A DNA stretch of 58,606 bases from a virus. Shown here one piece after another: positions 4,278-40,755 of the stretch (position 1 is its first letter; each line of letters begins with the position of its first letter). The notes beneath the pieces are model-generated. The model did not search any database. It was given only the letters and a program-made list of their open reading frames with translations, and was not told the DNA's origin. The position numbers and the translations under genes are program-made. The stretch covers positions 1 to 58,606 of IMG/VR virus record IMGVR_UViG_3300026528_000001; one strand, 5' to 3'.

Positions 4278-4546
4278 TGTGTATGCTTCTGTAGCCAAGT
4301 TTGTGCTTCCAAGGCCAGTTCTATGGTCCCTTTCGTCACCACGACCATGTAGGAGTTGAATTCGTCTGCGCCGATGTGCGGCTTGAGTTTGACGATGGCA
4401 TCCGCCATCTGCCGGAAAAGCTCCGCGGCAGCGAATTCGTGGAGGCTCTTCTTTCCTGACTTTTGGTAACGATTCAGGAATACCTGCACCGCCTTGTCAC
4501 GGTCGGAATTGTGGTCATCCTCAGCCCCACAGTGCTTGCAGGTCAC
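4274..4546 (-). CDS. Small protein of unknown function (90 residues)
   Basis: It starts with GTG at a GTGA overlap with the upstream membrane-protein gene. The N-terminus has a single CKHC pair, followed by a mostly helical sequence (FLNRYQKSGKKSLHEFAAA, LALEAQTWLQKH). No transmembrane segment is seen. It sits directly before a glycosyltransferase. A longer frame upstream exists but overlaps the better-supported gene at 4543-4719. Confidence 0.58.
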   Translation of the reverse strand: MTCKHCGAEDDHNSDRDKAVQVFLNRYQKSGKKSLHEFAAAELFRQMADAIVKLKPHIGADEFNSYMVVVTKGTIELALEAQTWLQKHTQ

Positions 4547-4719
4547 TTCGGGTTCCTCCCGTGAATGTCCTCCTCGAGCAGGGTGAGCCTCCGGTCCAAG
4601 CGCTCCTCCACATTCGAGAGGCGTATTTCTAGCGCGTCTAGTGAGGCACGCAAGGCCATGGCGAAGAGCCACAGGGCAACCACGCCGGTTATGACTGCGG
4701 TGAAGGCCCAGAAGTACAT
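4543..4719 (-). CDS. Single-pass membrane protein with coiled coil (58 residues)
   Basis: MYFWAFTAVITGVVALWLFA is a membrane segment at the extreme N-terminus. It is followed by a charged heptad-like helix (LDALEIRLSNVEERLDRRL). The layout resembles small phage membrane-anchored coiled-coil proteins. The ATG lies two bases after the stop of the gene at 4722, and the stop overlaps the next GTG. Function is unknown; a holin or membrane-adaptor role for the glycosyltransferases is possible. Confidence 0.6.
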   Translation of the reverse strand: MYFWAFTAVITGVVALWLFAMALRASLDALEIRLSNVEERLDRRLTLLEEDIHGRNPK

Positions 4720-4721
4720 GG

Positions 4722-4967
4722 TTAGTTTTGTCCTTCGGTCAAGTCGATGACTTGGACGTCTCCGAGCGCCTCACTCACCGCCTTGGCGAACCTTTGCGCG
4801 GCTGCGGCGTTCATACCCGGGTAGGTGATGACGTTCACTTTTCCATTCTTGGCGAGGTAGACTGCGCAGAGTATAACCTTGGCTCCAAGCTTCTCCCGCA
4901 ACGCTTCCATGAGTCGGCCGACATCCTGTTCACCCTTCCGTTTGACGGTCACATTTTCTGATGTCAT
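4722..4967 (-). CDS. Small protein of unknown function (81 residues)
   Basis: Starting at MTSENVTVKRKGEQD, the protein alternates helices and strands: a helix (VGRLMEALREKLG), a strand (KVILCAVYLAKNG), then KVNVITYPGMNAAAAQRF. It looks like a small alpha/beta domain. The upstream ATG at 5000 would overlap the glycosyltransferase gene more deeply and is less likely. It lies four bases after that gene's stop. Confidence 0.62.
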   Translation of the reverse strand: MTSENVTVKRKGEQDVGRLMEALREKLGAKVILCAVYLAKNGKVNVITYPGMNAAAAQRFAKAVSEALGDVQVIDLTEGQN

Positions 4968-4971
4968 TGGA

Positions 4972-6120
4972 TTATCTCTGGAACCATTTCTTCCACACAC
5001 CTGGCCACAGGGCGGTGTGCCAGTCCAAGTGCGAGACCATCTCGCGGGTTTGATGCTCGCATTCGCATCGGAAGAAGTTCTCTATCCAGTCCACCCAGGT
5101 CGCGGGGTTATAGACTGGTCTGAGGCAGTTGTAGGGCGTTTCCAGGCGCCACGCCACGGGCGCTACCTTCCACTCCTGATTCGGGACCAGTTCCGCCCCG
5201 CCCCCGTAATCTCCGACAATGCAGGGGACGCCGCAGGCCAAAGACTCAACTATGGGGTAACCAAACCCTTCTCCAAGACTAGGCAGCACGGTGAGGTCGC
5301 ACGCGGAATAGGCGTAGGAGAGCTCCTCATCGGTCATGTACTGGGTGACAGTGACCCTGCTGTTGAGTCCCAGGTCCTGTATGAGCGCGGGGATGGACCA
5401 TGCTCTTATGAGTAAATCCGTGTGGCACCAGAAGTGCCACTTTGGATCCCGTTTGGCCAAGACTGAAAAGGTAGTCATGGCCAAGCCCCAGTCTTTTCTC
5501 TCCTGGTTGGTCATGACACAGCCCACCAGTCTCTTATTCTTCCCTATTCCCAGACTCATGCGGCCAGCCACCTTGTCCCGGGGCTGCCATGTTTCCAGTT
5601 TGATTCCGTGGGGTATCCAGTCATCCTCCACCCCCAGTGTCTTTTGGGCAGCGTCTCTCCCGAACTGGGTATAGAAGAGTCTGCGGTCGTAGCCCTGGAG
5701 TACGGCGGTGAGCTCATGAGACAGCCTGCCTCCCGGTCCCAGAGCGTCGATGGGGAAGTAGCCCCATCGTTTGAACTGACCGCTGGTCAGGAATTGTTTG
5801 AGGTTCTCATCGGTCACAAACTCGGGCCTGGCGAACCACAGGAGGCGGGAGGGGTCCCAGATGGTCATGACTATGCCCTTCTCGTCTCCGGCGAAGTCGT
5901 GCCACACCGATTCCAATACTCCCTCCCCCCACTGGGCAGACTCGGGGAACCCGTACTGTTGGAAGGGAAACTGGCGTGACCCCACTCCCCCTCTGCCGAG
6001 ATAGCCCACGCGGTACTCCGGCATCGAGGACACCAAGGTAGCCAGATCCCTGCCGATGCGGGACAGTCCTCCCGGCAATTCGGGGGCATCACTCAGAAAG
6101 AGGATAGGTGTAGGCCTCAC
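4972..6120 (-). CDS. Glycosyltransferase family 4 (GT-B fold)
   Basis: This 382-residue enzyme starts at VRPTPILFLSDAPELPGG, where GTG overlaps the upstream stop. The N-terminal domain has the glycine-rich loop of GT-B enzymes. The C-terminal domain has the EX7E sugar-nucleotide motif in EGFGYPIVESLACGVP, near residue 300, followed by GDYGGGAELV. It is expected to be a retaining glycosyltransferase. It differs in fold from its two GT2 neighbours, so the cluster could build a short oligosaccharide or decorate one acceptor in steps. Confidence 0.85.
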   Translation of the reverse strand: MRPTPILFLSDAPELPGGLSRIGRDLATLVSSMPEYRVGYLGRGGVGSRQFPFQQYGFPESAQWGEGVLESVWHDFAGDEKGIVMTIWDPSRLLWFARPEFVTDENLKQFLTSGQFKRWGYFPIDALGPGGRLSHELTAVLQGYDRRLFYTQFGRDAAQKTLGVEDDWIPHGIKLETWQPRDKVAGRMSLGIGKNKRLVGCVMTNQERKDWGLAMTTFSVLAKRDPKWHFWCHTDLLIRAWSIPALIQDLGLNSRVTVTQYMTDEELSYAYSACDLTVLPSLGEGFGYPIVESLACGVPCIVGDYGGGAELVPNQEWKVAPVAWRLETPYNCLRPVYNPATWVDWIENFFRCECEHQTREMVSHLDWHTALWPGVWKKWFQR

Positions 6121-6356
6121 TTCCTGTGCTCTGCCTCCAGGGCGGCCTGCATCTTTTTGACCTCGTCGATACGAGCTTGAATCACAGCCTTGTCGATCTT
6201 GATGGTTATGGTTCCTATGCTTCCGACAAGTCCCAATGTGAACAACACAAGAACCAAGCGTTTCTTTAGCGTCAAGCTGTTTTCGGTGGCAATTGTGCCG
6301 ATGGAGAAGGAAAACAGTACGATGAAAAGGATATTCAACCACAGGTCGAAGGTCAT
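6117..6356 (-). CDS. Two-pass membrane protein (79 residues)
   Basis: Two hydrophobic segments are visible, WLNILFIVLFSFSIGTIA and LVLVLFTLGLVGSIGTITI. They are joined by a short basic loop, and a charged helix follows (VKKMQAALEAEHRK). It is coupled by ATGA to the upstream gene and by GTGA to the GT4 gene. It could anchor the glycosyltransferase or act at lysis; neither is shown. Confidence 0.65.
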   Translation of the reverse strand: MTFDLWLNILFIVLFSFSIGTIATENSLTLKKRLVLVLFTLGLVGSIGTITIKIDKAVIQARIDEVKKMQAALEAEHRK

Positions 6357-17505: not shown

Positions 17506-17804
17506 AGCCGGAAGAATCTATGGTCATCTCGGAAGCTGTTGATGCCGTGATCCGTTTCTGCTCATCCACCGCGGAGATAGACAAGCTCCATGCCAAGGCC
17601 TTGGAGGAATTGACCGGCCTCGTCAGGAATCTCCACGACCGGGCACTGGCTCTGGAGGAGAGGCTGGCTGTGGTCGAGAGGCGGTTTCAGGAAAACGTCA
17701 CCATCGACTACACCACACCACCGGGCACGTTCGTGCGGACGAAAGTCTCGCAGAGTGACCCGGCCGCCTCTCTCAAGACGCCCAACTGGGAGAAGAAGTT
17801 GTGA
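17502..17804 (+). CDS. Small helical protein of unknown function (100 residues)
   Basis: The first 65 residues form amphipathic helices (AVDAVIRFCSSTAEIDKLHA, LEERLAVVERRF) that may be a coiled coil. A polar tail follows. Coupled by ATGA upstream and GTGA to the glycosyltransferase downstream. Confidence 0.6.
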   Translation: MKPEESMVISEAVDAVIRFCSSTAEIDKLHAKALEELTGLVRNLHDRALALEERLAVVERRFQENVTIDYTTPPGTFVRTKVSQSDPAASLKTPNWEKKL

Positions 17805-18547
17805 CCATGGTCAACGCGGTGATGCTCGTCAGAGACAGGTTAGAACTCACCCGGCAGGCGATCTTCACAATGCTTGATCATGTGCCTGTCGGTTCGCTCA
17901 ACCTCACCATTGCGGATGACGGCAGCCAGGACGAGACGCGTTTCCTTCTCGAGCGATTTGCCAATGACCGTGTCCGCGTCCTGCGCCTCTTCCCCCCCGT
18001 GGGCATAGTCGGCCTCGCTCGCAACTTGGGCATCCTCGCCAGTGAGAGACTGTTTGGCCGGGGCGACTATCTCTATCTGGCGGACAATGACGCCTACCAC
18101 CTGCCCGGCTGGCTCGATACGCTACGTGGCGCATTTGAACGGGCTGAACCGCACGTCAAACTTCTCGGTGGTTACACTCATCCGTATCATGGCGTCAACC
18201 AATGGGCGCCAGCATCGTCACCAAGAATCGGTCTGCATGACGCGGTTCAGGGACTCTCTCAACTGATGCGTTGGAATACGTTTGACCGCTACGGGCCGTT
18301 TGACTCAAACGCTCAGGGCACTAACCAGTCAGAAGATTTTGCCTTTTGTCAGAGAATCATCAAGGACAGCTATCTGGTTGGCTCAATCTATCCTAGGGTA
18401 ATCATCAACTGCGGTCTGCTCGACTCCTACGGCAAGCCGTGTGTTGGGTATGAGGCGGTGCAGGCGGAGTTAGAGGCGGAGATAAGGGCACGGGGTTTGG
18501 AGGGAAAGGTGTACTACCCAACGGTGGGGGAGAAGGCGTCAGCATGA
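17801..18547 (+). CDS. Glycosyltransferase family 2 protein
   Basis: A 248-residue GT-A enzyme on the opposite strand to the other three. It shows VNAVMLVRDRLELTRQAI at the start, LTIADDGSQDET for donor binding, and YLYLADNDAYHLPGW for the metal-binding acidic motif. GTG 17801 overlaps the upstream stop; an ATG two codons later is also possible. It is followed by a tiny membrane peptide gene and a SAM methyltransferase gene, a pairing seen in surface-sugar pathways. Confidence 0.82.
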   Translation: MTMVNAVMLVRDRLELTRQAIFTMLDHVPVGSLNLTIADDGSQDETRFLLERFANDRVRVLRLFPPVGIVGLARNLGILASERLFGRGDYLYLADNDAYHLPGWLDTLRGAFERAEPHVKLLGGYTHPYHGVNQWAPASSPRIGLHDAVQGLSQLMRWNTFDRYGPFDSNAQGTNQSEDFAFCQRIIKDSYLVGSIYPRVIINCGLLDSYGKPCVGYEAVQAELEAEIRARGLEGKVYYPTVGEKASA

Positions 18548-18648
18548 AATGGTACAAGGCCGTGGCCATTCTGTGCCTCATGGCAACCATCGCTTTCTTC
18601 ATTGACATCTATGGATTCGGTTTTGGTCCCACGCCCGTGCTGCGCTAG
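18544..18648 (+). CDS. Membrane micropeptide (34 residues)
   Basis: MKWYKAVAILCLMATIAFFI is a complete membrane segment, followed by a short Gly/Pro tail. The ATG overlaps the glycosyltransferase stop as ATGA. The peptide is too short to assign, but the coupling and membrane composition support expression. Confidence 0.5.
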   Translation: MKWYKAVAILCLMATIAFFIDIYGFGFGPTPVLR

Positions 18649-18665
18649 GCGTCTCACCGGGCCTT

Positions 18666-19232
18666 ATGGATGCTGATGGGGATAGCTTGGTACGAGTGGA
18701 CAAGGTGAGCGGACTGAGAATCAACGCCGGGTCAGGTCAGAGACCCTTCGCCAATTTCGTCAACCTCGACATCCAGGAGAAGTGGCGCCAGCCGGCCCTG
18801 GACAAGGGCGGTGAATTCATCTTGGGTGACATGGACAGTCTCCCGTTTCCCGATGAGTCCGCCTCACTGGTAGTGTCTCATCATACGCTGGAGCACATGG
18901 GCTGTGGCGAGGCTGCGCCCTTCGTCAAAGAAGCTCATCGTGTCCTGCGTCCCGGCGGGAGTCTCTTGGTGTTTGTCCCTGACATGCTGGCGCTCGCACG
19001 GGCCTACCTCGAGGGCAAACTCACCACACAGGTCTACCTGACTAATGTCTACGGGGCCTACATGGGCGATCCGCACGATGCCCATGCGTGGGGTTTCGAC
19101 AGGGGGAGTCTTTATGACTTCCTGCGTGCCTCGGCCCCATGGAAGAGAGTGATGCGCTTCGACTGGCGCGACATCCAGGGAATGGACGCCGCCCGGGACT
19201 GGTGGGTACTCGATTGCGAGGCGGTCAAGTGA
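18666..19232 (+). CDS. Class I SAM-dependent methyltransferase (188 residues)
   Basis: RINAGSGQRPFANFVNLDI is the SAM-binding motif I with its acidic end, LGDMDSLPFPDESASLVVSH is motif II, and HTLEHMGCGEAAPFVKEAHR with VLRPGGSLLVFVPD completes the type 11 methyltransferase core. No target-recognition domain for DNA is present, so a small molecule or sugar is a more likely substrate. It lies next to a glycosyltransferase. Confidence 0.85.
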   Translation: MDADGDSLVRVDKVSGLRINAGSGQRPFANFVNLDIQEKWRQPALDKGGEFILGDMDSLPFPDESASLVVSHHTLEHMGCGEAAPFVKEAHRVLRPGGSLLVFVPDMLALARAYLEGKLTTQVYLTNVYGAYMGDPHDAHAWGFDRGSLYDFLRASAPWKRVMRFDWRDIQGMDAARDWWVLDCEAVK

Positions 19233-19480
19233 CAAAGAAGGCGCCTGCTGCACTGGAGGCTGCGTATCATGCGGCGTGGGGAGAACCGGTCAACCGTTGC
19301 GACAGCCGCAACCCGCACGACAGTGTTCGGCTGCAGCATTTGGTCCAGGATCTCTACTTTCCTGTCCGCTGGATGGCCCGGTGCGTGAAACCAAAGGGTC
19401 ACCCCGGCCCTCACCTCGGCCCGGACGAATCGGTGTGGCATGATGCGAAGGCAGAGGCGAAATGTACTCCGAAAGAGTGA
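19229..19480 (+). CDS. Small protein of unknown function (83 residues)
   Basis: GTG at a GTGA overlap is preferred to an upstream ATG that lies inside the methyltransferase gene. The sequence contains WMARCVKPKGHPGPHLGPDE, a Cys/His-rich segment common in small phage proteins, with other Cys residues at RCDS and KCTP. Its end overlaps the terminase gene start by 19 bases. Confidence 0.6.
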   Translation: MTKKAPAALEAAYHAAWGEPVNRCDSRNPHDSVRLQHLVQDLYFPVRWMARCVKPKGHPGPHLGPDESVWHDAKAEAKCTPKE

Positions 19481-20688
19481 CTGATTCCCAGATCCGCCTG
19501 ACCGAGCGTTCTCACCACGGGCGCCTCCACCTCACCTACCACTCCGTCTCTGAGTGCGACGACATGGGGAAGAAGCTTGCCTCGGCCATCGACGAGAGTG
19601 GGAATCAAAAACGCAAGCTCACCGAGCCCGAGCGTGACTTCGTCCGCAATGAGAGAATCCTGAGTAAGATTGACTTCCATTACTGGCGAGAGAGGTACGC
19701 CAGTCTCATACGTGACCCGGTGGAAGGCGGTGGCCTCGGCAGATTTGACCACCTCTGGGATTCCCAAGTGGAGATTCTTCGCTTGGTAGCCAAGGCCGAA
19801 GAGGACGCCTACGACGCCTTCCTCGCCGGCGACCCCAGCGACGGAGTACTCCTGGCAATTCACAAGGCCCGCCAACTGGGTGCCTCCATGCTGGCGCAGG
19901 CCATGTTGTGGCACCGGGTTACCACCACCGAACACCTCCGGGCCCTCATTGCGAGTGTGGAAGGTGAGAAGACCCGCCTTCTCTATGACCGGGGTGACCG
20001 CATACTGAACAATCTGCCGTGGTGGCTCAAGCCCTCCGTCCGCTATCAGGTCAAGGGCGAGCATACGATGTTCGACCGGTTAGACACGATTATCACGTTG
20101 CAGGATGCGAAGCAGACCACCGGTCTGGGCCAAGGGGAGCAGTGGGACATCTCGCATCTTACTGAGTGCGCGAGCTGGCCTTACCCAAATGTGATTGAGC
20201 ATGATTTCTTCCCCACGATCCCACAGAGTCCTCTGGCTCTTTCCTTTCTCGAATCCACCGCGCAAGGCAGAGGCAACTGGTGGCATGATTTCACCGAGCG
20301 TGTCCGCAACGGCAAGACCCGGCGCTGGCGCTATTGCTTCATCCCCTGGTACATCGAGACCAAGAAGTATCGCGCCAAACCTCCCGCCAATTGGATCCCC
20401 TCGGACGTGTCCATGCTCCACGCCAAGATGGTTCACGACACCTCTGCCGAGTGGTGCGGCGGCCGGTCGGTGTTCTTACCCAAAGAACAACTCTATTGGT
20501 ACGAGACCACCCGCGCGGAGTACCAGGAAGCGGGGAAGCTGAATTTATTCCTGACCAATTACGCGGCGACGCCCGAGGAGTCATTTCAACATTCGGGTTC
20601 AACGGCCTTTACGCCTGAATGCCTGGAATGGGCCAGGCTCATGACGACGAGAGCCAAGGCGACGGCCTACGATCTGGTGACGCGATGA
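19462..20688 (+). CDS. terL (N-terminal part): Large terminase, ATPase part only (split TerL)
   Basis: This 408-residue protein is the packaging motor ATPase. The Walker A variant is HKARQLGAS (residues 134-142), and Walker B ends in Thr234-Glu235 (DISHLTECASW). SFLESTAQGRGNWWHDF is motif III, the coupling region. The sequence runs to the usual end of the ATPase domain (NYAATPEESFQHSG, then CLEWARLM) and stops. The nuclease domain that normally follows is encoded 3.47 kb downstream at 24162-24998. No intein or intron signal was seen at the break. Confidence 0.85.
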   Translation: MYSERVTDSQIRLTERSHHGRLHLTYHSVSECDDMGKKLASAIDESGNQKRKLTEPERDFVRNERILSKIDFHYWRERYASLIRDPVEGGGLGRFDHLWDSQVEILRLVAKAEEDAYDAFLAGDPSDGVLLAIHKARQLGASMLAQAMLWHRVTTTEHLRALIASVEGEKTRLLYDRGDRILNNLPWWLKPSVRYQVKGEHTMFDRLDTIITLQDAKQTTGLGQGEQWDISHLTECASWPYPNVIEHDFFPTIPQSPLALSFLESTAQGRGNWWHDFTERVRNGKTRRWRYCFIPWYIETKKYRAKPPANWIPSDVSMLHAKMVHDTSAEWCGGRSVFLPKEQLYWYETTRAEYQEAGKLNLFLTNYAATPEESFQHSGSTAFTPECLEWARLMTTRAKATAYDLVTR

Positions 20689-20927
20689 TGAAGCTTCACC
20701 CGGATGGAACGGTTCGCAAGTACGGGGGCCAGTTTGAGGAAGGCGACTGGACCGTCAGTCCCGCCGAACTGGTCGAGCCGCCAAGCGTGGAGCCGAATCT
20801 CTCCTGTGAATGCGGCTCCGATCAGTTCAAGGTGTGCTGGTGGGATTACCCCAATTGCGGCGGCTACTGCCGCGTGGTGTGCGCCGCCTGTGAGAAGGAT
20901 CTGGTTCTGATTAACGACTACGCCTGA
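20685..20927 (+). CDS. Zinc-ribbon protein (80 residues)
   Basis: Starts at an ATGA overlap with the terminase ATPase stop. The C-terminal half holds CECGSDQF, then CGGYCRVVCAACEKD, so two or more CxxC-type knuckles. This is the first gene of the stretch inserted between the two terminase parts. Function unknown. Confidence 0.62.
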   Translation: MMKLHPDGTVRKYGGQFEEGDWTVSPAELVEPPSVEPNLSCECGSDQFKVCWWDYPNCGGYCRVVCAACEKDLVLINDYA

Positions 20928-20944
20928 GAGAGGTTGGAGGCCCA

Positions 20945-21229
20945 ATGATGACCGATGCTGAGGTCGCGGCAGTGGAACTCAGGCGACTCAGGGAGAAACG
21001 CCGTCTCCGCTTGCGTCCCGCCTCCAGAGTGACCAGGATGAGAGTTGAACGTGAGCGCCTTGGCCTGACGGTGCGCGAGGTTGCACGCTATGTCGGAATC
21101 TCGAACTCTTTCGTGAGCCAAGTGGAAAACGGCATGGCCGAACCTTCGCTGTCGAAGGGTCTACGGCTGGCCAGGTTTTTCGGTCTTGCTCCCGGGGAGT
21201 TGCTGGTCACGGTGAAGGAGGAAAAGTGA
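20945..21229 (+). CDS. XRE-family helix-turn-helix protein (94 residues)
   Basis: RERLGLTVREVARYVGISNS followed by FVSQVENGMAEPSLSKGLRL is a textbook XRE helix-turn-helix. The N-terminal 35 residues are very basic. GGAGG precedes the ATG. It lies within the terminase-split region and may regulate late genes. Confidence 0.78.
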   Translation: MMTDAEVAAVELRRLREKRRLRLRPASRVTRMRVERERLGLTVREVARYVGISNSFVSQVENGMAEPSLSKGLRLARFFGLAPGELLVTVKEEK

Positions 21230-21300
21230 ACCGATTTCTGACCGATTGGTATGAGTTCGTGGCGGTGAAGCTCGGGGTATTCATCTGGAGGCTCCCGTGA
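21226..21300 (+). CDS. Micropeptide (24 residues)
   Basis: The peptide begins VNRFLTDWYEFVAVKLG and ends FIWRLP. It starts at a GTGA overlap with the XRE stop and ends at a GTGA overlap with the next gene. Coupling at both ends is hard to explain by chance. It is aromatic and amphipathic, possibly membrane-associated. It may serve only to carry ribosomes through the gap. Confidence 0.42.
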   Translation: MNRFLTDWYEFVAVKLGVFIWRLP

Positions 21301-21482
21301 AAGTAACAGTTGACTTCGACTACGACGACGCTTTGGCCCGTGCGGTGGCCATCCATAACGGCGGCCGCGGTCTCGCCGGCCCGGAGGAGGTCCGCTCCTG
21401 GGCTAAAGAACAACTCAGCATCGCCGGGGAGATGGCCGTCGAGGAGATGCGCGAGTCCATGGAAGAAGGAGAACCCTCATGA
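21297..21482 (+). CDS. Small acidic protein of unknown function (61 residues)
   Basis: MKVTVDFDYDDALARAVAIH gives one strand and a helix; the rest is an acidic helix (AVEEMRESMEEGEP). Four-base overlaps on both sides. No family recognised. Confidence 0.58.
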   Translation: MKVTVDFDYDDALARAVAIHNGGRGLAGPEEVRSWAKEQLSIAGEMAVEEMRESMEEGEPS

Positions 21483-21724
21483 GCCAGACCAGAGTGGTTG
21501 TCTGTCGCTTTGACAGTACTGGTCACCTGGAGGGAAAGAAGCGTACTTATAAGGCGGTCAAGGCCGCCGTGCTCGAAGAGGGCTGCTTCTCTGTCTTCGA
21601 GGCAACCGCCAGCATGAAGGACGCGAAGTTGTTCACTCGCCTACACCATGACCCCGAGATCGAGATTGACAAGGAGAATTCCGTCTTCCCGTGGATTGCC
21701 GTGAGGAGGAAGGAACCTTCCTGA
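21479..21724 (+). CDS. Protein of unknown function (81 residues)
   Basis: Begins MSQTRVVVCRFDSTGHLEGK and ends FPWIAVRRKEPS, an alternating strand-helix-strand pattern. It overlaps the upstream gene by four bases and ends one base before the next start. No family recognised. Confidence 0.58.
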   Translation: MSQTRVVVCRFDSTGHLEGKKRTYKAVKAAVLEEGCFSVFEATASMKDAKLFTRLHHDPEIEIDKENSVFPWIAVRRKEPS

Positions 21725-21725
21725 T

Positions 21726-22217
21726 ATGAACGCGCATCAGAAGATCGCCTTGGCCAATCATTGCCGCCTCGCTGTCGAGGTCGTCCGCCCCATGTTTCAC
21801 TGGGTGCGCCCCGACGGCATGACTGTCACTCTGACCGTTAACTCGGGCTACGAGTTAATCGAGGAAGGCTATGGCGGGCCCGTGTGGCACGCCAGTGTCT
21901 GTCCCCAGGGGCGGAAAGTGTCACAGCGCATCTTGGCTTATGAAACACACGGTGTGCTTCGCGGTGTGGGTTTCGCCTCTCTGGGAGAATGGGCAGAATA
22001 CAGCCCTGACTTGACCGCCTATCACTTGCGTCGTCGCCTCAGTCCTGTTGAGGAAATGCTGATAGTCCCGCCGGTCGCAGACATTCGCGGTACAAAGGAG
22101 GCGTGGGACAGAGTGGATCGGGTGCGCGAGGAATTGCCCAAACATAAAGAAATGATCATGTGCTGGGAAGAGATGCTGCGTCAGGAGTTGGGGAGAGTGA
22201 GCCGATGCGCACTGTGA
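21726..22217 (+). CDS. Conserved phage protein of unknown function (163 residues)
   Basis: The middle, VLRGVGFASLGEWAEYSP, and YHLRRRLSPVEEML with VADIRGTKEAWDRV match a pattern common to phage proteins of unknown role. The N-terminal part is beta-rich (VWHASVCPQGRKV). It overlaps the next gene by 13 bases. Confidence 0.65.
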   Translation: MNAHQKIALANHCRLAVEVVRPMFHWVRPDGMTVTLTVNSGYELIEEGYGGPVWHASVCPQGRKVSQRILAYETHGVLRGVGFASLGEWAEYSPDLTAYHLRRRLSPVEEMLIVPPVADIRGTKEAWDRVDRVREELPKHKEMIMCWEEMLRQELGRVSRCAL

Positions 22218-22576
22218 TCTGTGGCGGTCCCAAGACCGGCAAGACCACCCTCTCCCAATCTCTTCCCAGTCCCGTCTACCATACCGACGACCGCATCTCT
22301 CTGGGCTGGTCCGAAGCTTCCGAGTCCGTCTCCCAACTCTTCTCCTCTCCCGGCCCCTGGACCGTCGAGGGCGCCGCCGCCGCCAGGGCGTTACGCAAGT
22401 GGCTCGCCTCCAATCCCACAGGCAAACCTTGCGACCAAGTCATCCTCCTCTCGGGCGTCATGGACTCCGCTCAGTACACTCCCCGCCACGCCGCCATGGC
22501 CAAGGGCATAGAGACCGTCTTCAGTGAGATCGAAGGGGAACTCCTCGCAAGAGGGGTCGAGGTTATTCGCCAATGA
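22205..22576 (+). CDS. P-loop NTPase/kinase-like protein (123 residues)
   Basis: MRTVICGGPKTGKTTLSQSL is a Walker A loop at the N-terminus, and VYHTDDRI may be the next acidic motif. WTVEGAAAARALRKWL and CDQVILLSGVM fit the small kinase-like NTPases seen in many phages. The ATG at 22205 is chosen because the family starts just before the P-loop. Substrate unknown. Confidence 0.72.
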   Translation: MRTVICGGPKTGKTTLSQSLPSPVYHTDDRISLGWSEASESVSQLFSSPGPWTVEGAAAARALRKWLASNPTGKPCDQVILLSGVMDSAQYTPRHAAMAKGIETVFSEIEGELLARGVEVIRQ

Positions 22577-23667
22577 ATATTCTCCTTGTCCAACTCGACG
22601 GCCGTCTTCCCAACCTCGCCGTCATGCGCCTCTCTGCTCACCACAAAGCCATGGGCGACACCGTCGAATTCCACCGTGGCCGCGTCACTCAACCCAACCT
22701 CTTCTTCCGCCCCGACCGTGTGTACGCCTCGCTGATCTTCGAGAAGACACGGCCTTACGCGCATGAACTCTTGCGGACTTATCCCGACGCCATTCCGGGC
22801 GGCACCGGCTGGAGCATCGCAGACACTTTGGAAGACCATGATGTGGAGACTTTGACGCAGGACTACTCCTTCTATCCCAATTTCCCTTTCTCCATCGGCT
22901 TCACCTCCCGTGGCTGCCGCATGCGCTGTCCCTTCTGTGTGGTTCCGCGTAAGGAAGGCCGTCCGCGCGCCGTCTCCACTATTGCTGGCATCTGGCGCGG
23001 CAACCCGTGGCCGCGCAAGCTCATCCTGCTCGACAACGACTTCTTCGGCCAGCCCGAGAGTCAGTGGCAGGCGCGCATCCAAGAAATCCGTGAAGGCAAC
23101 TTCCGCATCTCCTTCTGCCAGGGCGTCAACGTCCGCCAGATTACTCCCGAGTCCGCCGCCGCTCTCGCTTCCGTCCATTACCGCGACAACGAATTCCGCG
23201 AGCGCATCCTCTACACCGCTTGGGACAACCTAGGCGACGAGAAGGTATTCAAGCGCGGCGTCGGCATTCTCAATTCGGCTGGCATTCCGTCCTCCCATCT
23301 GCGCGTCTACATGCTCATCGGCTACCGCCAGGACGAAACTTGGGACGAGATCCTCTACCGCTTCCACTCCCTCGTCTCTCTCGGCTGCCAGCCCTACCCC
23401 ATGGTCTACGGTGACACTCGCCCAGATCTGAAGGCCTTCCAGCGCTGGGCCGTCACAGGCCTCTACAGGGCGGTGAGGTGGGAGGACTATCGTGACCCGA
23501 GACTCATAGGCAGACGCGTGGTCAGAGGCCTCACCGGGGGTGGAGCTTGGGCAATCCACTCAGGGTTCGCAGAGCGAACCGGAGAGGGATTGGACAAGCG
23601 AGGAGGGGACCAAAGGGGGCAAGCTCCCTTTGAGAACCACCAACTGCGAGGAGTGGACACTCGGTGA
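22573..23667 (+). CDS. Radical SAM protein (364 residues)
   Basis: The cluster-binding motif is Cys115-x3-Cys119-x2-Cys122 in SRGCRMRCPFCVVP, a standard radical SAM signature that binds a 4Fe-4S cluster and SAM. The N-terminal part (MNILLVQLDGRLPNLAVMRL) resembles the Rossmann-like domain seen in B12-type radical SAM enzymes. LRVYMLIGYRQDETWDEILY is the late barrel strand. Residues 318-346 are encoded by palindromic copy C, so the C-terminal 45 residues are atypical. The substrate is unknown; phage radical SAM proteins have no settled role. Confidence 0.85.
   Translation: MNILLVQLDGRLPNLAVMRLSAHHKAMGDTVEFHRGRVTQPNLFFRPDRVYASLIFEKTRPYAHELLRTYPDAIPGGTGWSIADTLEDHDVETLTQDYSFYPNFPFSIGFTSRGCRMRCPFCVVPRKEGRPRAVSTIAGIWRGNPWPRKLILLDNDFFGQPESQWQARIQEIREGNFRISFCQGVNVRQITPESAAALASVHYRDNEFRERILYTAWDNLGDEKVFKRGVGILNSAGIPSSHLRVYMLIGYRQDETWDEILYRFHSLVSLGCQPYPMVYGDTRPDLKAFQRWAVTGLYRAVRWEDYRDPRLIGRRVVRGLTGGGAWAIHSGFAERTGEGLDKRGGDQRGQAPFENHQLRGVDTR
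23524..23608 (+). repeat. Palindromic element, copy C (in frame in the radical SAM gene)
   Basis: Left arm AGAGGCCTCACCGGGGGTGG, right arm GCGAGGAGGGG. Three nested stems lie between: GCTTG/CAAGC, CAATCC/GGATTG and GGTTCGC/GCGAACC. It is read in frame as RGLTGGGAW through KRGGD, residues 318-346. Confidence 0.88.
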
Positions 23668-23912
23668 ATTCCCATCAGCGCGTCTGCATTGAGTGCGGTC
23701 AAGTCAAATCCAGAGAAAGGGACTTCCCGGCTGTGAATGATCCTTCCCGTGTTCAGCCTCGCTATCTTGACCGCTGCTGGGCCTGCTATCGTAGCATCCT
23801 CAGACGCATCGACATTCGCGAGCGCATACGCGAACTCAGGGTCAGGGGCCTTACCAGGGGTGGAGCTTCGAACGTGCGCAGCACGGACGAAGCGAGGAGG
23901 GGGGACAAGTGA
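23664..23912 (+). CDS. Zinc-knuckle protein with element-derived C-terminus (82 residues)
   Basis: CIECGQVKSRERDF and CWACYRSI give two CxxC pairs, 32 residues apart. Residues 61-82 (from RGLTRGGAS to EARRGDK) are encoded by palindromic copy D in the same frame as copy C. GTG starts at a GTGA overlap and the stop overlaps the next GTG. The intact domain is only about 60 residues. Confidence 0.65.
   Translation: MNSHQRVCIECGQVKSRERDFPAVNDPSRVQPRYLDRCWACYRSILRRIDIRERIRELRVRGLTRGGASNVRSTDEARRGDK
23844..23904 (+). repeat. Palindromic element, copy D (forms a protein C-terminus)
   Basis: Left arm AGGGGCCTTACCAGGGGTGG and right arm GCGAGGAGGGG flank the stem GCTTCG/CGAAGC with an inner GTGC/GCAC. 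It encodes RGLTRGGA and RRGD in the same register as copy C. The gene ends eight bases after the element and the next gene starts in that overlap. Confidence 0.87.
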
Positions 23913-24169
23913 CACGACCATGGATAACCGAGCAACTCATCTCTCTCGTCGAATCTCCCGCCGTCACCCAGCCCGTCATCGCCCGCGCCTACTCCGCGGC
24001 ACTGTCTTACTCTGGCGTCAGATGGTCCGAGGTCAATGCCGCCATTCTCCGCCGCTACAAGCCGTCGGGTCTCACGCGCATCAAGGAAATGGCTTGGAAG
24101 ATAACGGAAACCTATGAGGAGGTTCTTGATGAAATGAGGGCAGAGACTTACAGGAGGTCGGGTGCCTGA
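23909..24169 (+). CDS. Small helical protein of unknown function (86 residues)
   Basis: Starts at a GTGA overlap. The sequence is helical (VIARAYSAALSYSGVRWSEV, LTRIKEMAWKITETYEEVL) and resembles a DNA-binding or cap domain without a clear motif. It overlaps the terminase nuclease gene by eight bases and contains that gene's AGGAGG ribosome binding site. Confidence 0.62.
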   Translation: MTRPWITEQLISLVESPAVTQPVIARAYSAALSYSGVRWSEVNAAILRRYKPSGLTRIKEMAWKITETYEEVLDEMRAETYRRSGA

Positions 24170-24998
24170 AACCTACCGTATCGGCACCTTCGGTAGTCTT
24201 GTTCCCGTCTCTTACGACAGAGATCCAAGAGGTGTGATTTTTTTGTTCGAACCTCCCAATCCCCGTGCCACCTATGTCCTGGGCTGTGATCCCACCAAGG
24301 GGATCACCGGTTGGTCCCGCGAACTCCGCACGCAAGACGACTCCAAGACCGACAACGGGGCCATCGAGATCATCCGCAAGGGGCGCACCCAAGAAGACCC
24401 AGATGTCCAAGTCTGTGAATTCGCGGCCCCCATAGACCCCTACGAACTGGCCATCTACTGCAACATCCTCGGGCGCCTCTACGGAGGGGCGGACGAATCC
24501 GGCCAGGCCCTCACGATAATCGAGGTGTGGCCCGGACCAGGACTGCCGACTCAGCGTGAGTTGATCAACAGGTACGGGTATACGAATCTGTTTGTCTGGA
24601 AATACCTGGACTCTATGGCGGTCAAGGCCACTCACTCACTAGGCTGGACCTCCACTCAGAAGTCGGTCCGTGACCTTTGGATCATGGGCTCGCGCCACAT
24701 CCAGGGTCGGCACTTCCTCCCTGCCTCCCCGTGGCTGGTGGAGGAGATGTCGGACTGCGAGACAGACCCGGTCAAGATGTCAGGCAAAGCGATCTACGGC
24801 CGTCACGACGACCGGGTGCGCGCCTTACTCATGGCCATCTGGGCGGCTCACGACTGGAGTTTCCAAGTTGAGATCCCGGAGAATGTGGACATCGAGACCG
24901 GCGCCCCTGGTTTGGATTGGCAGAGAAGTGACATCAGTGTGGAAGACATGCTGAGCGAGTGGGATGACCGCTTCAGCAGAATGTTGGAGGGTGGGTGA
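24162..24998 (+). CDS. terL (C-terminal part): Large terminase, nuclease part only (split TerL)
   Basis: This 278-residue protein is the RNase H-like nuclease that cuts the concatemer. Acidic residues expected at the active site are Asp43 (VLGCDPTKG), Glu121 (TIIEVWPGPG) and Asp216/Asp217 (GRHDDRVRALLMAIWAAH). Its N-terminus, FLFEPPNPRATYVLGCDP, is what follows the ATPase domain in fused terminases. It has its own GTG start with AGGAGG upstream. The ATPase half is at 19462-20688; together they make about 686 residues. Confidence 0.83.
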   Translation: MPETYRIGTFGSLVPVSYDRDPRGVIFLFEPPNPRATYVLGCDPTKGITGWSRELRTQDDSKTDNGAIEIIRKGRTQEDPDVQVCEFAAPIDPYELAIYCNILGRLYGGADESGQALTIIEVWPGPGLPTQRELINRYGYTNLFVWKYLDSMAVKATHSLGWTSTQKSVRDLWIMGSRHIQGRHFLPASPWLVEEMSDCETDPVKMSGKAIYGRHDDRVRALLMAIWAAHDWSFQVEIPENVDIETGAPGLDWQRSDISVEDMLSEWDDRFSRMLEGG

Positions 24999-26582: not shown

Positions 26583-28493
26583 ATGAGCGAAAAGTCTGAC
26601 CTCACGCCTCCCGAGGCGGAACTCGAACGCAAGATCCTGGGTTGGTGTGCTTCCGCATTGGAAGAAGGCGAGCTATTCCTCAAGCAACAGAAGGGCTATA
26701 GCAAGATTTCTGAGACGATTGACGCTATTTCCGGTGACGATTTGCCCGTGAAATCTGTCTCTCTCTCGACCACCACCTGCAACCAATTAGGTCATATCGC
26801 ACTGAACCTAAGTGCTGCAATGACTGATGTTAAACCGTTCTGGGAATACAAGACCTTCAACAAAAAATACGAGCCCCAACAAGTGGCCCTAGGCAAACTC
26901 TCCCTCCACCTCTGGCTGCAGCGCCGCCTCAACATGCGCTATGCCGACACAGTGAGGTATTGGGTTGCGGCCGGAACCGGATTTATGCATCCCTACTACA
27001 ACCCGATTACCGGCGACCTTGACGCCTCCGCCGAGGATCCTCGGGACATCCTCCCCGTCCGTCCCAGTTCCTACGTTTCCATCCAGGATGCGGTTGGGGT
27101 CATCATGCGTCGGGAGCGGTCGGTCAACTACCTCAAGCAGAGGTATCCTGAGAAGGCGCACCTGATCAAGCCGGACCGTGACTCCTCTCTCGCCAAACTC
27201 TCTACCTCCACGCGTGCGGGTCGCCTCCTGCAATCGATCAACGCCTTCTCCCCCTTTGCCGAATATCTCTTTGGCAACAAGCCGTCCCAAGACATCAAGG
27301 GGATTCCCGTCTGTGACGAGTTCATCCTCTACGTCAAGTCCGACGAAATTCACCGGGGCACCACTCCCATCATCATGGGGGACCCCGAGACCAACTGGTC
27401 CTACACGGTCAACCCCGGGGAAAAAAAGTACCCTCGCGGCCGGCGTATCCCGTTCACCCGGACCACAGTCTTGGAAGACGGCCCCAACCAGTACTGGCAC
27501 GGCCTGTTTCCACTCTGCAAGCTGACACTCGACCCATGGCCCTGGACTTGGCTTGGCAAGGCTCCGCTCTGGGACCTCCTGCCTCTCCAGAAGGCTCTGG
27601 ACTGCAACATCCGCGTCGTGGACGATCACAACGAGAAGCTGGCCCGCCCCGACCTGATTGCCGACAAAAACGCGGTCTCCCGCGCCGCGCTGGATCGCAT
27701 AGACACGCGCAAGGGCGGGCTGAAGATGCAGCAGAATCCGCTCGGGGGCAAGGGCATCCAATTGCAGTACCCGAACCCACTGGACCCATCGATCCGGGAC
27801 TACATCACTTTCCTGATCGACCGGATGGACACCTACTCTGGGATCAAGGATGTGAGTTCCTTGATGCGCTTGGGGCAAATCCCGTCATCCGAGACTATCG
27901 AGAAGATTCTCGAAAGTATGACCCCGGCCATCCGTCTCCGCTCCCAGGCCGCCGAAGCCTTCATGACCGAGTTTGCGATGATGACGGCTTCGAATGTGAT
28001 GCAGTTCTATACTCTGCCCATGCGCCTCGCCATCCTCGGCCCATCCGGTCTCACTTTCGAAGACTTCGACTATGACCCGGGCACCATGGTTCCCGATTAC
28101 ATTCACCCGGAGGACCACAACAACTTCGGCGACGTGACTCCCGAAGCGCTCCTGCGTGGCCCTCGCCCTCGTTATGACCGTGCCCGTGAGTTCTTGCGCC
28201 AGTTCACCTACCACATTGCTCCAGGTTCTCTCCTGGCGGCCTCGGAGATCACCAGGAAGCTTTTGTACCTGCAATTGGCGCGTGCTGGGATGGTCGATGT
28301 TTGGACACTTTTAGAAATATTGGGAGTGCCAAATGTAGGCGAGCCGCCCGAAGGAACGGGGAATACCATCACCGCCCGCCTGATTGCGCAGCAGCAAATG
28401 GGCTTCGGGCCTAATGCGACGAGTGTGGGTAGAAAAGCTTCGGGACAGGAAATGCCTCAAATGACTCCCGGCGGGATTGTGGAGTCAAGATAA
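26583..28493 (+). CDS. Portal protein (636 residues)
   Basis: The length, position after the terminase, and an acidic helical N-terminus fit a podovirus-type portal, the 12-subunit DNA gate. Portal-like features are the long helical region with LTPPEAELERKILGWCASAL, the middle core LLPLQKALDCNIRVVDDHNE, and the late segment YITFLIDRMDTYSGIKDV. GGAGGAG precedes the ATG. Its stop overlaps the end of the antisense HNH gene by nine bases. Confidence 0.75.
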   Translation: MSEKSDLTPPEAELERKILGWCASALEEGELFLKQQKGYSKISETIDAISGDDLPVKSVSLSTTTCNQLGHIALNLSAAMTDVKPFWEYKTFNKKYEPQQVALGKLSLHLWLQRRLNMRYADTVRYWVAAGTGFMHPYYNPITGDLDASAEDPRDILPVRPSSYVSIQDAVGVIMRRERSVNYLKQRYPEKAHLIKPDRDSSLAKLSTSTRAGRLLQSINAFSPFAEYLFGNKPSQDIKGIPVCDEFILYVKSDEIHRGTTPIIMGDPETNWSYTVNPGEKKYPRGRRIPFTRTTVLEDGPNQYWHGLFPLCKLTLDPWPWTWLGKAPLWDLLPLQKALDCNIRVVDDHNEKLARPDLIADKNAVSRAALDRIDTRKGGLKMQQNPLGGKGIQLQYPNPLDPSIRDYITFLIDRMDTYSGIKDVSSLMRLGQIPSSETIEKILESMTPAIRLRSQAAEAFMTEFAMMTASNVMQFYTLPMRLAILGPSGLTFEDFDYDPGTMVPDYIHPEDHNNFGDVTPEALLRGPRPRYDRAREFLRQFTYHIAPGSLLAASEITRKLLYLQLARAGMVDVWTLLEILGVPNVGEPPEGTGNTITARLIAQQQMGFGPNATSVGRKASGQEMPQMTPGGIVESR

Positions 28494-29150
28494 GCTATGG
28501 TCTTCCTTCTTTCGTCTGTCGTGTTTTTTCATCTCGGGCGGCTTCGTTGTGAGTGCTCTTTCAACAGACCATCCTGCCTTGAGTCTGTTGAAAAGCGTCG
28601 GCTGTCGGATTCCGGTGACTCTCGCCCATTCGGTCACACAGAGAGTCTTTCCTTGAAAGGTCAGATAGGTGCTGGAGCGGCGGTTCTGCGCCTGTTGCGT
28701 TTTTGTTGCCCAGACACAGTTCTCAGGCGAATAAGGTCCCTCATTATTCTTTCGTTCCAGGGTATGCTGCGACGTTGGGCGTGGTCCCATGTCTTTGTAG
28801 AAGGCTTCAAAGGAATTGAGCCACCTCTCGCAAACTGTGATTCCCCGTGCGCCGTAACGGAAAAACCCAGTGTCATTCGGTCTGTAGCAACGGCCTTTCA
28901 TCGCGTCCCAGATCTTAAACTCGCGCGAGCGTGTGAGTCCGTGTGTTGTTTTGGTTTCGCGTATCCAGTCCTTCAACAGGCAACCGCAAGACTTTGTGTG
29001 GCCGGTTGTGAGGTTCTGTGCCTGTACGATCACTTCCCTGCCGCACTCACATTGGCAGAGCCAGTAGGTTCTTTTGTTCTCAGTTCTATCTTCCGAAATT
29101 ACTGTGAGTCTGTTGAAGTGTCGGTCTGTAAGATTAATCTTACGCGACAT
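28485..29150 (-). CDS. HNH homing-type endonuclease 1
   Basis: This 221-residue protein has the common phage HNH plan: FNRLTVISED, then CQCECGREVIVQAQNL and SCGCLL zinc cysteines, then MKGRCYRPNDTGFFRYGARG, and the HNH core HTLERKNNEGPYSPENCVWA. A C-terminal helix-turn-helix (VTEWARVTGIRQPTLFNRL) should bind DNA. It is antisense to all neighbours and starts after GGAGGA. It is a clear paralogue of 40081-40722 and probably a mobile free-standing endonuclease. Confidence 0.87.
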   Translation of the reverse strand: MSRKINLTDRHFNRLTVISEDRTENKRTYWLCQCECGREVIVQAQNLTTGHTKSCGCLLKDWIRETKTTHGLTRSREFKIWDAMKGRCYRPNDTGFFRYGARGITVCERWLNSFEAFYKDMGPRPTSQHTLERKNNEGPYSPENCVWATKTQQAQNRRSSTYLTFQGKTLCVTEWARVTGIRQPTLFNRLKAGWSVERALTTKPPEMKKHDRRKKEDHSLS

Positions 29151-35100: not shown

Positions 35101-36198
35101 ATGGCTGAATTAGACCAGCTTACAGTCGCAACAAAACGCTACATCCGCAAGACCCCCGCGTTGGTGGACAACGTCTTCAACCGGGATCCCTTCCTGGCCT
35201 ACGCCAAGCTGAACGTCAGGGAAGATTTCACCGGGGGCCGGCTCATTGGGGAAGATTTTGTCTATGACGCGCTGATCGGCGGGTTCTATCAGAAAGGCAA
35301 GGAATTCGACGTCACCGAGAAGCAGGTTGAACAGCAGGCGCAGTTTCTCATGAAGTTCGCCGAGGCGGGCGTCACCCTCAGCAAGGAAGACGTGCAGGTT
35401 CTCAACAAGGGGCCCGAGGCGTCCTTCCGCCTGATCGAATCGCGCCTTACCAATGCCTACATGACCATCGGGGCGCATATGGCTATCGCCCTCTACCTCA
35501 ACGGTGTCCGTGCCGGATTCACCCCGTTCTACAACGGCATTGCCGAGGCCCTCAACGACAACTCCACGGTCAGTTGGGACAACAACACCTACTCCACCTA
35601 CGGCGGCATCACGCGTGGCGGGGCAGTGGGCAACGCACTAAACAGTGCCCCGACCAATGTCAATGGAACTATCGAGTACAACACGCTCGAGGAAACCTAC
35701 GGGGACGCGAGCTTCGGGGATGCGGAGTTTGAACCTAATCTGGGTGTGACCACGGTCAAGGGATATTCGTACATCAAAGAGAAGTTTCAGACTCAGCAAA
35801 GATTTAATGACACGCAAGACCCGCGCATCGGGTTCAATGGACTCAAGTTCAACAACGCCACTCTGATCAAGTCGCGCTACGTTCCCGGGTCAGACATCGT
35901 GACCGCCAATACCGACTCGAACAAGATCGCGGTAGCGATGCTCAAGGAAACCTCGGGCAACGTCATCACCGCCTACCCCCCGCTTGCGGTTTCCGCGAGC
36001 GAGACCTTGCTATGGCTGAATTGCAGGAAACCCTTCTTTTTCTTCTACCTGTCGAACGATCCTGAGTTCGGTCTCGGCTTCACGGGGTTCAAGCCCGGGC
36101 AAGGAAACACCAAAATTGTCGGCCAGGTCTTGGCTGCCTCAGCCATCACGTTTCCTGGTCCTCGTTATCACCGCCAGATCCACGGGTTCACCGGCTAG
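35101..36198 (+). CDS. Major capsid protein (365 residues)
   Basis: The position after the scaffold and the sequence pattern support this. DFTGGRLIGEDFVYDALIGG, then EVTLSKED-like strands, a long insert, and a late segment SRYVPGSDIVTANTDSNKIA with FFFFYLSNDPEFGLGFTGFK are typical of HK97-fold capsid proteins of podovirus-like phages. AGGAG precedes the ATG. Two hairpins follow the gene. Confidence 0.78.
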   Translation: MAELDQLTVATKRYIRKTPALVDNVFNRDPFLAYAKLNVREDFTGGRLIGEDFVYDALIGGFYQKGKEFDVTEKQVEQQAQFLMKFAEAGVTLSKEDVQVLNKGPEASFRLIESRLTNAYMTIGAHMAIALYLNGVRAGFTPFYNGIAEALNDNSTVSWDNNTYSTYGGITRGGAVGNALNSAPTNVNGTIEYNTLEETYGDASFGDAEFEPNLGVTTVKGYSYIKEKFQTQQRFNDTQDPRIGFNGLKFNNATLIKSRYVPGSDIVTANTDSNKIAVAMLKETSGNVITAYPPLAVSASETLLWLNCRKPFFFFYLSNDPEFGLGFTGFKPGQGNTKIVGQVLAASAITFPGPRYHRQIHGFTG

Positions 36199-38705: not shown

Positions 38706-40100
38706 ATGATGAAACGTCCCGCCCTGGTCCTGACGCTAGTCTTTCTCCTTTGCTGCCAGCGACCGCTTTTCGGCAGGGAACGCCTCCAAGGATGGTGTCA
38801 GGACGGGGCGGGCGTGGTCACGGTTTCTGGGACCACCGCGACCATCACCCCGGGGACCGCCAACCGGGCGATGGTCAGCTACCCCTCCTGCACGGTGACG
38901 GTTTACCTCACCGGCACCACTACTCTCGCCAGCCTGTACTCCGACAATTCCGGCACGGTAAAATCCAATCCCTTCACCGCCGCCAACACGGGCCAATTCT
39001 TCTTTTACGCTGATTCAGGCCGCTATGATGTCCGTCTCTCTGGCGGGGGTATCTCGACTCCCTTCACTCTCTCTGACTTCTCCCTCTGGGACACGGGCAC
39101 ACTCGGGGCTTCTGGCACAGTCCTCCGTAGCAACGGCTCGAATCCCGTGTGGGCTACGCTCGGTTCTTCCGACCTTCCCACGCTCCAGGCATTGAGTGGC
39201 ACCCTCACGGCCGCCAAGGGCGGGACGGGCCAGAGTTCATTCGTGAAAGGGACCTTGCTGGTCGCTTCTGCCGGGACGACTCTCGGCAAGCTGGCGGTAG
39301 GGACAAATACCCAGGTTCTTACTGCCGACAGCACTCAAACCCTGGGAGTGAAGTGGGCCGCACCCGCAGTCACGGCGCACAATATTCTTTCGGCTTCACA
39401 TGGAGACAGTCTGGCAGGAACGGTAGTGCGCGGCGACATCATCGTTGGGAACTCGACTCCCGCGTGGTCCCGGCTTGCCATCGGGGCAAACAACCGAGTG
39501 CTCAGAAGTAACGGCACGGATGCATCCTGGGCGCAGGTGGCTCTGGCTACCGATGTGAGCGGGGTTTTGCCTGTGGCAAACGGCGGGACCGGGACGGCCT
39601 ACTTCACCGTGGCTGGTCCCACCACAGCTCGTACTCTGACTTTTCCTGACGCTAACGCGACGGTGCTCACGACTAATGCCGCAGTGACCGCCGCACAGGG
39701 AGGCACAGGGCAATCTTCATTCACTAAGGGTGATGTGACGGTAGCATCGGGCTCCACGACGCTCGTGAAGCTCCCGGTGGGTTCGGACAACCAGTTGCTC
39801 ACAGCGGATAGCTCTCAGACCAGTGGCCTTAAGTACGGGTGGAAGCATCTGACGGCGACCGCCACGTTAGACTTTCCAAGCACCAATGCTCAATTGTCGG
39901 CGGATCTCACCATCGCGGTGACAGGGGCCGCCGTGGGAAATCCAGTCATACTCGGCACACCCGCAGCTCCAGATGCAAACAGTGCGTACACCGCCTTCAT
40001 AAGCGCGAGCGGAGTTTGCACGGTACGCTTTCATAACTACAGTTCAGGGGCGATCAACCCGGCTTCTGGAAGTTTCACGGTTATTGTTGTTGTTCCTTAG
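38706..40100 (+). CDS. Tail-fibre-like protein with signal peptide (464 residues)
   Basis: The body has the classic fibre repeats: AAKGGTGQSSFVKG, VANGGTGTAYFTVAGPTTAR and AAQGGTGQSSFTKG, spaced by beta segments, and a C-terminal module (AYTAFISASGVCTVRFHN) like those ending prophage fibres. The N-terminus MMKRPALVLTLVFLLCCQRP is a signal peptide, possibly with a lipobox-type Cys. Its last 20 bases overlap antisense HNH gene 2. Confidence 0.75.
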   Translation: MMKRPALVLTLVFLLCCQRPLFGRERLQGWCQDGAGVVTVSGTTATITPGTANRAMVSYPSCTVTVYLTGTTTLASLYSDNSGTVKSNPFTAANTGQFFFYADSGRYDVRLSGGGISTPFTLSDFSLWDTGTLGASGTVLRSNGSNPVWATLGSSDLPTLQALSGTLTAAKGGTGQSSFVKGTLLVASAGTTLGKLAVGTNTQVLTADSTQTLGVKWAAPAVTAHNILSASHGDSLAGTVVRGDIIVGNSTPAWSRLAIGANNRVLRSNGTDASWAQVALATDVSGVLPVANGGTGTAYFTVAGPTTARTLTFPDANATVLTTNAAVTAAQGGTGQSSFTKGDVTVASGSTTLVKLPVGSDNQLLTADSSQTSGLKYGWKHLTATATLDFPSTNAQLSADLTIAVTGAAVGNPVILGTPAAPDANSAYTAFISASGVCTVRFHNYSSGAINPASGSFTVIVVVP

Positions 40101-40722: not shown

Positions 40723-40755
40723 GGCTTCTCTCCAGGTGAGAAGTTGTGTCGGCAA

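What the first reader, a model, noticed from the sequence alone, without database searches (positions are those of the whole stretch)
19462..24998. Large terminase split into ATPase and nuclease genes 3.47 kb apart with nine genes between
The first gene ends just after the ATPase domain and the second starts where the nuclease domain normally begins; both keep their key residues (Thr234-Glu235; D43, E121, D216/D217). All intervening genes are on the same strand and mostly coupled, so the break is old and tolerated. The packaging motor must assemble from two chains or be joined in another way.
Basis: partly seen in the sequence, partly recalled or inferred. Interest (0 to 1): 0.78.

Follow-up and report, generated by a model that had tools for sequence, protein, structure and literature searches.

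The report
Phage DNA-packaging enzyme made as two proteins
In this uncultured virus, and in a whole family of its relatives, the enzyme that pumps DNA into new virus shells and cuts it is made as two separate proteins instead of one, and the gap between the two genes collects other genes (here nine), so these phages can be used to test whether pump and cutter need to be joined.

Summary
Window 19462-20688 encodes a complete T4-gp17-like terminase ATPase. Window 24162-24998 encodes a complete RNase-H-fold terminase nuclease (AlphaFold pLDDT 90.6; best PDB match T4 gp17). Nine same-strand, mostly overlapping genes lie between them.

The nine genes did not break the gene. They sit in an older gene boundary. 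After clustering relatives at 95% identity, 65 are split and 28 fused. The space between the two domains runs from 8 bp to 3.9 kb, and this window is third largest. Inserts differ from phage to phage: homing endonucleases, a DNA methylase, glycosyltransferase-methyltransferase, peptidases, and here a radical-SAM gene.

In a focused tree of 30 sequences, fused and split forms interchange at least five times, with fused forms nested among split ones. Both parts are under purifying selection (omega about 0.03-0.25) and co-vary (r = 0.88); one nuclease has apparently been exchanged. In relatives L040/L041 a LAGLIDADG endonuclease sits at the ATPase 3' end and carries a copy of the ATPase tail, a homing footprint. 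No intron, intein remnant or second terminase was found, so the motor is most likely a two-chain complex.

Split terminases are already reported in Arthrobacter cluster AY phages (consecutive genes). This is a new variant of a known kind.

The parts
19462..20688 (+). Terminase large subunit, ATPase half (408 aa): Walker A region K135/R137/Q138/G140, Walker B/catalytic H232-LT-E235, coupling motif E264-S-T-A267
   Evidence: ORF; PHROG terminase large subunit E 6e-6; profile to T4 gp17 E 5.5e-6; invariant columns
20685..20927 (+). Inserted gene 1, small Cys-rich protein; ATG overlaps the ATPase stop by 4 nt
   Evidence: no family
20945..21229 (+). Inserted gene 2, Xre/Cro-type HTH regulator
   Evidence: HTH_3 E 2e-13
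21297..21482 (+). Inserted gene 3, unknown, 61 aa
   Evidence: no homologue in the other loci held at that point
21479..21724 (+). Inserted gene 4, unknown, 81 aa
   Evidence: no confirmed family; no relative in viral contigs
21726..22217 (+). Inserted gene 5, unknown, 163 aa
22205..22576 (+). Inserted gene 6, small P-loop NTPase (GGPKTGKTT)
   Evidence: weak AAA hits; one viral relative, 52% identity
22573..23667 (+). Inserted gene 7, radical SAM protein (CRMRCPFC)
   Evidence: phrog_9298 E 5e-51; 211 viral stretches encode relatives, none of the 80 fetched loci beside a terminase of this family
23664..23912 (+). Inserted gene 8, Cys-pair zinc-ribbon-like protein
   Evidence: weak only
23909..24169 (+). 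Inserted gene 9, unknown, 86 aa; overlaps the nuclease start by 8 nt
24162..24998 (+). Terminase large subunit, nuclease half (278 aa, RNase H fold; D43, E121, D216/D217)
   Evidence: AlphaFold pLDDT 90.6; T4 gp17 3cpe E 2.7e-8, RB49 nuclease E 2e-6; invariant residues
26583..28493 (+). Portal protein (context: same late operon)
   Evidence: phrog_156 E 1e-7
35101..36198 (+). Major head protein (context: tailed phage)
   Evidence: phrog_9953 E 5e-18

Best explanation
The large terminase of this phage family is encoded as two genes. In the window the ATPase (translocase) and the RNase-H nuclease are separate, complete polypeptides translated from one late operon. They most likely assemble non-covalently at the portal into one motor that packages and cuts DNA. 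Shown: both domains are complete, catalytic residues are conserved, both are under purifying selection, and they co-vary. Inferred: that they form a complex. The split predates the nine genes. The boundary between the two genes is a tolerated landing site where genes are gained and lost, with homing endonucleases among the visitors, and it can re-fuse when the genes are adjacent.
For: Domain completeness and fold. Family-wide split with gaps of 8-3901 bp. At least five fused/split changes in the 30-row tree (0% of bootstraps show one origin) and seven in the 82-row tree. Different cargo in the boundary. Homing footprint: L040/L041 against L037. Selection: omega 0.03-0.25 for both halves, including widely separated pairs L043/L045 and L073/L070. 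Co-variation r = 0.876 over 65 split clusters and 0.958 for those with gaps over 900 bp. Tail and head lengths equal those of adjacent-gene relatives. No intron in the gap. Two-gene terminases exist in cultured Arthrobacter cluster AY phages: PMC11920828, PMC12820723.
Against: No direct evidence for a complex. All members of the close family are metagenomic; the host is unknown and no virion has been seen. One nuclease exchange (L003/L006) and the general tolerance of distance would also fit a loosely recruited nuclease.
Confidence: 0.82

Rival explanations
1. Modular motor: the ATPase alone forms the translocating ring (as the phi29 packaging ATPase, which lacks an active nuclease), and the nuclease is a separate cutter recruited only at initiation and termination.
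For: Any spacing and cargo is tolerated; the nuclease can apparently be exchanged between lineages, L003/L006 ATPase 96% but nuclease 71% identity; phi29 precedent from general knowledge, with its vestigial nuclease domain (PMC7672431, abstract).
Against: Strong co-variation of the two parts; repeated nesting of fused forms suggests that joined and separate forms work alike.
Confidence: 0.3
2. The two halves are joined after transcription or translation by an intron, trans-splicing or a split intein.
For: Inteins and homing endonucleases do occur in this terminase family; ICP1 terL is spliced (PMC10448857).
Against: No intron family at the gathering score, nor in the gap at E <= 5; each half has its own stop and start and no extra residues; nine coupled genes lie between.
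Confidence: 0.03
3. Assembly chimera: the inserted block does not belong between the two genes.
For: Single metagenomic contig; most inserted genes are orphans.
Against: Gene overlaps at both edges (4 nt at 20685, 8 nt at 24162); even G+C; independent contigs with boundaries of 1.3-3.9 kb, seen in pairs such as L043/L044, L070/L147 and L073/L075.
Confidence: 0.03
4. The nuclease half has decayed or taken another role, and packaging is cut by another enzyme (e.g. HNH).
For: HNH endonuclease genes lie elsewhere in the window.
Against: Catalytic residues are invariant and omega is 0.03-0.18 in the nuclease across split pairs.
Confidence: 0.04

Closest known systems
T4 gp17 / RB49 gp17 large terminase
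   Same: Same two folds, same order, same catalytic residues; best profile and fold matches for both halves
   Different: One polypeptide in T4; two genes 3.5 kb apart here
Two-gene terminase of Arthrobacter cluster AY phages (BillyTP gp2/gp3, BlueShadow)
   Same: ATPase and nuclease in separate genes of a functional, isolated phage (PMC11920828, PMC12820723)
   Different: The genes are consecutive and overlapping; no detectable sequence relation to this family (best E 0.04); so an independent case
Genes-in-pieces ribonucleotide reductase made by a homing endonuclease (Friedrich et al. 2007, cited in PMC10448857)
   Same: Essential phage enzyme working as two peptides; homing endonucleases sit at the break in relatives L035, L038, L040, L041, L126
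   Different: No endonuclease is now in the window's gap; the gap holds nine other genes
Tunturiibacter phage Tunturi_1 terminase (PP887698)
   Same: Nearest cultured homologue over the whole ATPase (27% identity)
   Different: Fused, 723 aa
Terminase inteins of mycobacteriophages (PMC5050341)
   Same: Relatives L007, L019 and L051 carry P-loop inteins; L055 and L139 carry inteins before the conserved CATPEESFQ-type motif
   Different: The window itself has no intein

Membership tests
T4-gp17-like large terminase | P-loop ATPase with Walker A, Walker B/catalytic Glu, coupling motif | tested here: met
   Invariant K135, R137, Q138, G140, H232, E235, E264-S-T-A267; gp17 profile match
T4-gp17-like large terminase | RNase-H-fold nuclease with acidic triad | tested here: met
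   D43, E121, D217 invariant, D216 at 90% or more, in 80 sequences; fold match to gp17
T4-gp17-like large terminase | Both domains in one polypeptide | tested here: not met
   Two ORFs 3473 bp apart; only one ATPase match in the record
T4-gp17-like large terminase | ATP-driven DNA packaging and cleavage | not testable with these tools
   Needs protein or phage
Cluster AY-type two-gene terminase | ATPase and nuclease in two genes | tested here: met
Cluster AY-type two-gene terminase | Genes consecutive | tested here: not met
   Nine genes between
Cluster AY-type two-gene terminase | Homologous by sequence | tested here: not met
   No significant profile match
Homing-endonuclease genes-in-pieces | Homing endonuclease gene at the break | tested here: not met
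   None among the window gap genes scanned against Pfam and PHROGs (all but the 61-aa gene at 21297), beyond weak hits; present in relatives L035, L038, L040, L041, L126
Intron- or intein-interrupted terL | Intron or intein signature at the junction | tested here: not met
   No Rfam match; no extra residues at either end

The most novel reading that the evidence does not exclude
The covalent link between pump and cutter has been abandoned in a large phage clade: the ATPase ring translocates alone, and the nuclease is a separately encoded, exchangeable module recruited only to cut. The packaging motor thus evolves by swapping nucleases and carries a cargo locus in the middle of its own gene.
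Probability: 0.25. Interest if true: 0.8.

Novelty: new variant of a known kind. Interest (0 to 1): 0.6.

Why it matters
The large terminase is usually treated as one chain, and how its ATPase and nuclease are coupled during packaging is debated. A clade in which nature has separated, spaced, re-fused and even exchanged the two halves gives natural experiments on whether the link is needed. It also shows homing endonucleases and cargo settling inside a hallmark gene. In practice, annotators and phylogenies that rely on full-length terL will miss or mis-measure such phages: neither half has a meaningful Pfam or NCBIfam match, and the nuclease has no PHROG.

Tried and rejected
Intron or split intein joining: Rfam at the gathering score (whole window) and at E <= 5 (gap) found nothing, and the domain ends hold no extra residues. 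Assembly chimera: overlaps at both edges, even G+C, independent contigs. Nuclease decay: rejected by dN/dS and invariant residues. The inserted block as a shared mobile cassette: rejected, window insert genes had no specific homologue in the other loci held (the HTH gene only weak matches elsewhere), and the radical SAM relatives had no terminase of this family within the fetched flanks. A formal AU test for a single clade of split forms on 82 rows did not finish; replaced by a careful 30-row tree with bootstraps. Cluster AY terminase as a homologue: no significant match. Searches for 'split terminase' and similar phrases found no paper on this family.

Full report
What is there. The window is one 58.6-kb virus contig of a tailed phage: a portal gene at 26583 and a major head protein at 35101. 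The ORF 19462-20688 is a terminase large-subunit ATPase. Pfam and NCBIfam give no meaningful match, but PHROGs gives terminase large subunit (E 6e-6), and a profile of 14 relatives matches the T4 gp17 ATPase (E 5.5e-6). The ORF 24162-24998 had no Pfam or PHROG match. An 80-sequence profile matches the RB49 and T4 gp17 nucleases (E 9e-18 and 8e-12), and an AlphaFold model (pLDDT 90.6) matches T4 gp17 best in the PDB. D43, G47, E121 and D217 are invariant and D216 nearly so across the 80. A fused homologue, L031, models as both domains and matches full-length gp17 at E 1e-22. Each half is therefore complete, and the gene border falls in the interdomain linker.

The nine genes between. They run 20685-24169, all on + and mostly overlapping: a Cys-rich protein, an Xre-type HTH, unknowns, a small P-loop protein, a radical SAM protein (phrog_9298), a zinc-ribbon-like protein and an unknown. 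Only the radical SAM gene is widespread in viruses (211 stretches). It was never beside a terminase of this family in the 80 loci fetched. The others are near-orphans.

The split is a family trait. From viral contigs, genome contigs and cultured phages I collected 112 distinct ATPase sequences with a nuclease in reach: 81 split and 31 fused; clustered at 95%, 65 split and 28 fused. In every split case the nuclease is downstream on the same strand. The distance between the domains is a continuum: 8, 11, 12, 16 ... 712, 942, 971, 1565, 1863, 1881, 2348, 3185, 3488 (window), 3756, 3901 bp. The window is thus the tail of a distribution. The survey started from split members, so the ratio is not an unbiased frequency. 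One adjacent case, L002, has both genes in one frame separated by a single TAA, so read-through is possible there.

History. On an 82-row tree of ATPase plus nuclease columns, fused and split need at least seven changes. On a careful 30-row tree of the window's half they need five, and no bootstrap tree has a single origin. The window lies in a well-supported clade of 23 (20 split, 3 fused) whose outer branches L058, L059, L133 and L087 are fused. The simplest reading is an early fission followed by re-fusion at least three times (L031, L050, L128). Independent fissions are not excluded. Nearest cultured homologues are fused.

Cargo and homing elements at the boundary. Contents differ among phages: HNH endonucleases (L035, L126), LAGLIDADG-type endonucleases by motif (L038, L040, L041; phrog_5046), a DNA methylase (L020), glycosyltransferase-methyltransferase (L038, with related ORFs in L037, L040, L042), a subtilase-like and an M15-like peptidase (L070, L073), and large unknowns (L043, L045). 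The L037 versus L040/L041 comparison is telling. L037 has no endonuclease, and its ATPase ends RVVEAQGYKIDVERVA. In L040/L041 a 195-aa endonuclease follows the ATPase and itself (as read in L040) ends RVVEAQGYKIDVERVA, while the ATPase carries a replacement tail. This is the footprint of insertion into the last codons of the ATPase gene. Relatives also hold inteins at the P-loop (L007, L019, L051) and just before the CATPEESFQ-type motif (L055, L139).

Both halves work as a pair. Pairs of relatives give omega of 0.05-0.25 for the ATPase and 0.03-0.18 for the nuclease, including widely separated pairs. Distances of the two halves correlate at r = 0.876 among split forms, close to 0.896 in fused ones, and 0.958 for those with gaps over 900 bp. 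Yet L003 and L006 share 96% in the ATPase and only 71% in the nuclease, while L004 and L006 share 91% in the nuclease and 84% in the ATPase. The break therefore also permits exchange.

How it works. Most likely two chains form one motor. The ATPase tail after Q376 (32 aa) and the nuclease head before D43 (42 aa) equal those of adjacent-gene relatives, and their sum (74) lies inside the range of fused linkers (65-118). Nothing is left for an intein or intron, and no intron family is found. Assembly in a complex is inference. A transiently recruited nuclease is the main rival and the most novel reading.

What is known. Two-gene terminases, consecutive, are described in Arthrobacter cluster AY phages (PMC11920828, PMC12820723; seen), with no detectable sequence relation. 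A homing endonuclease has made a two-piece, functional ribonucleotide reductase (Friedrich 2007, cited in PMC10448857), and ICP1 terL is spliced (PMC10448857). I found no paper on this family. New here are the extent of the clade, the cargo boundary, the repeated fission and fusion, and the homing footprint. I class it as a new variant of a known kind.

Noticed in passing
window 28485-29150 (-) and 40081-40755 (-): Two HNH endonuclease genes (phrog_374, E 1e-66 and 3e-59) on the opposite strand within the late operon, the first overlapping the 3' end of the portal gene; likely free-standing homing endonucleases.
   Followed up: partly
window 17801-19232: A family-2 glycosyltransferase and a methyltransferase sit directly upstream of the ATPase, where relatives often have a small conserved gene, so gene gain is not limited to the ATPase/nuclease border.
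   Followed up: partly
L016 6008-7999, L019 1496-3490, L051 1413-3425: Inteins in the Walker A motif of the split ATPase (Intein_splicing matches in L016 and L051, LAGLIDADG_3 in L051; L019 by homology and motifs).
   Followed up: yes
L055 5271-7574, L139 4397-6664: Inteins at a second site, before the conserved CATPEESFQ-type motif near the end of the ATPase domain, close to the fission point.
   Followed up: yes
L003/L006/L004: Discordant ATPase and nuclease identities indicate exchange of the nuclease gene between close phages from one metagenome.
   Followed up: partly
window 22573-23667: Radical SAM protein of a family common in viruses (211 stretches, about 50% identity) with no known function; its last ~30-55 residues are not shared with relatives.
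   Followed up: no
window 2180-6342: Several glycosyltransferase genes on the minus strand (phrog_2170, phrog_29879), suggesting surface or DNA glycosylation functions.
   Followed up: no
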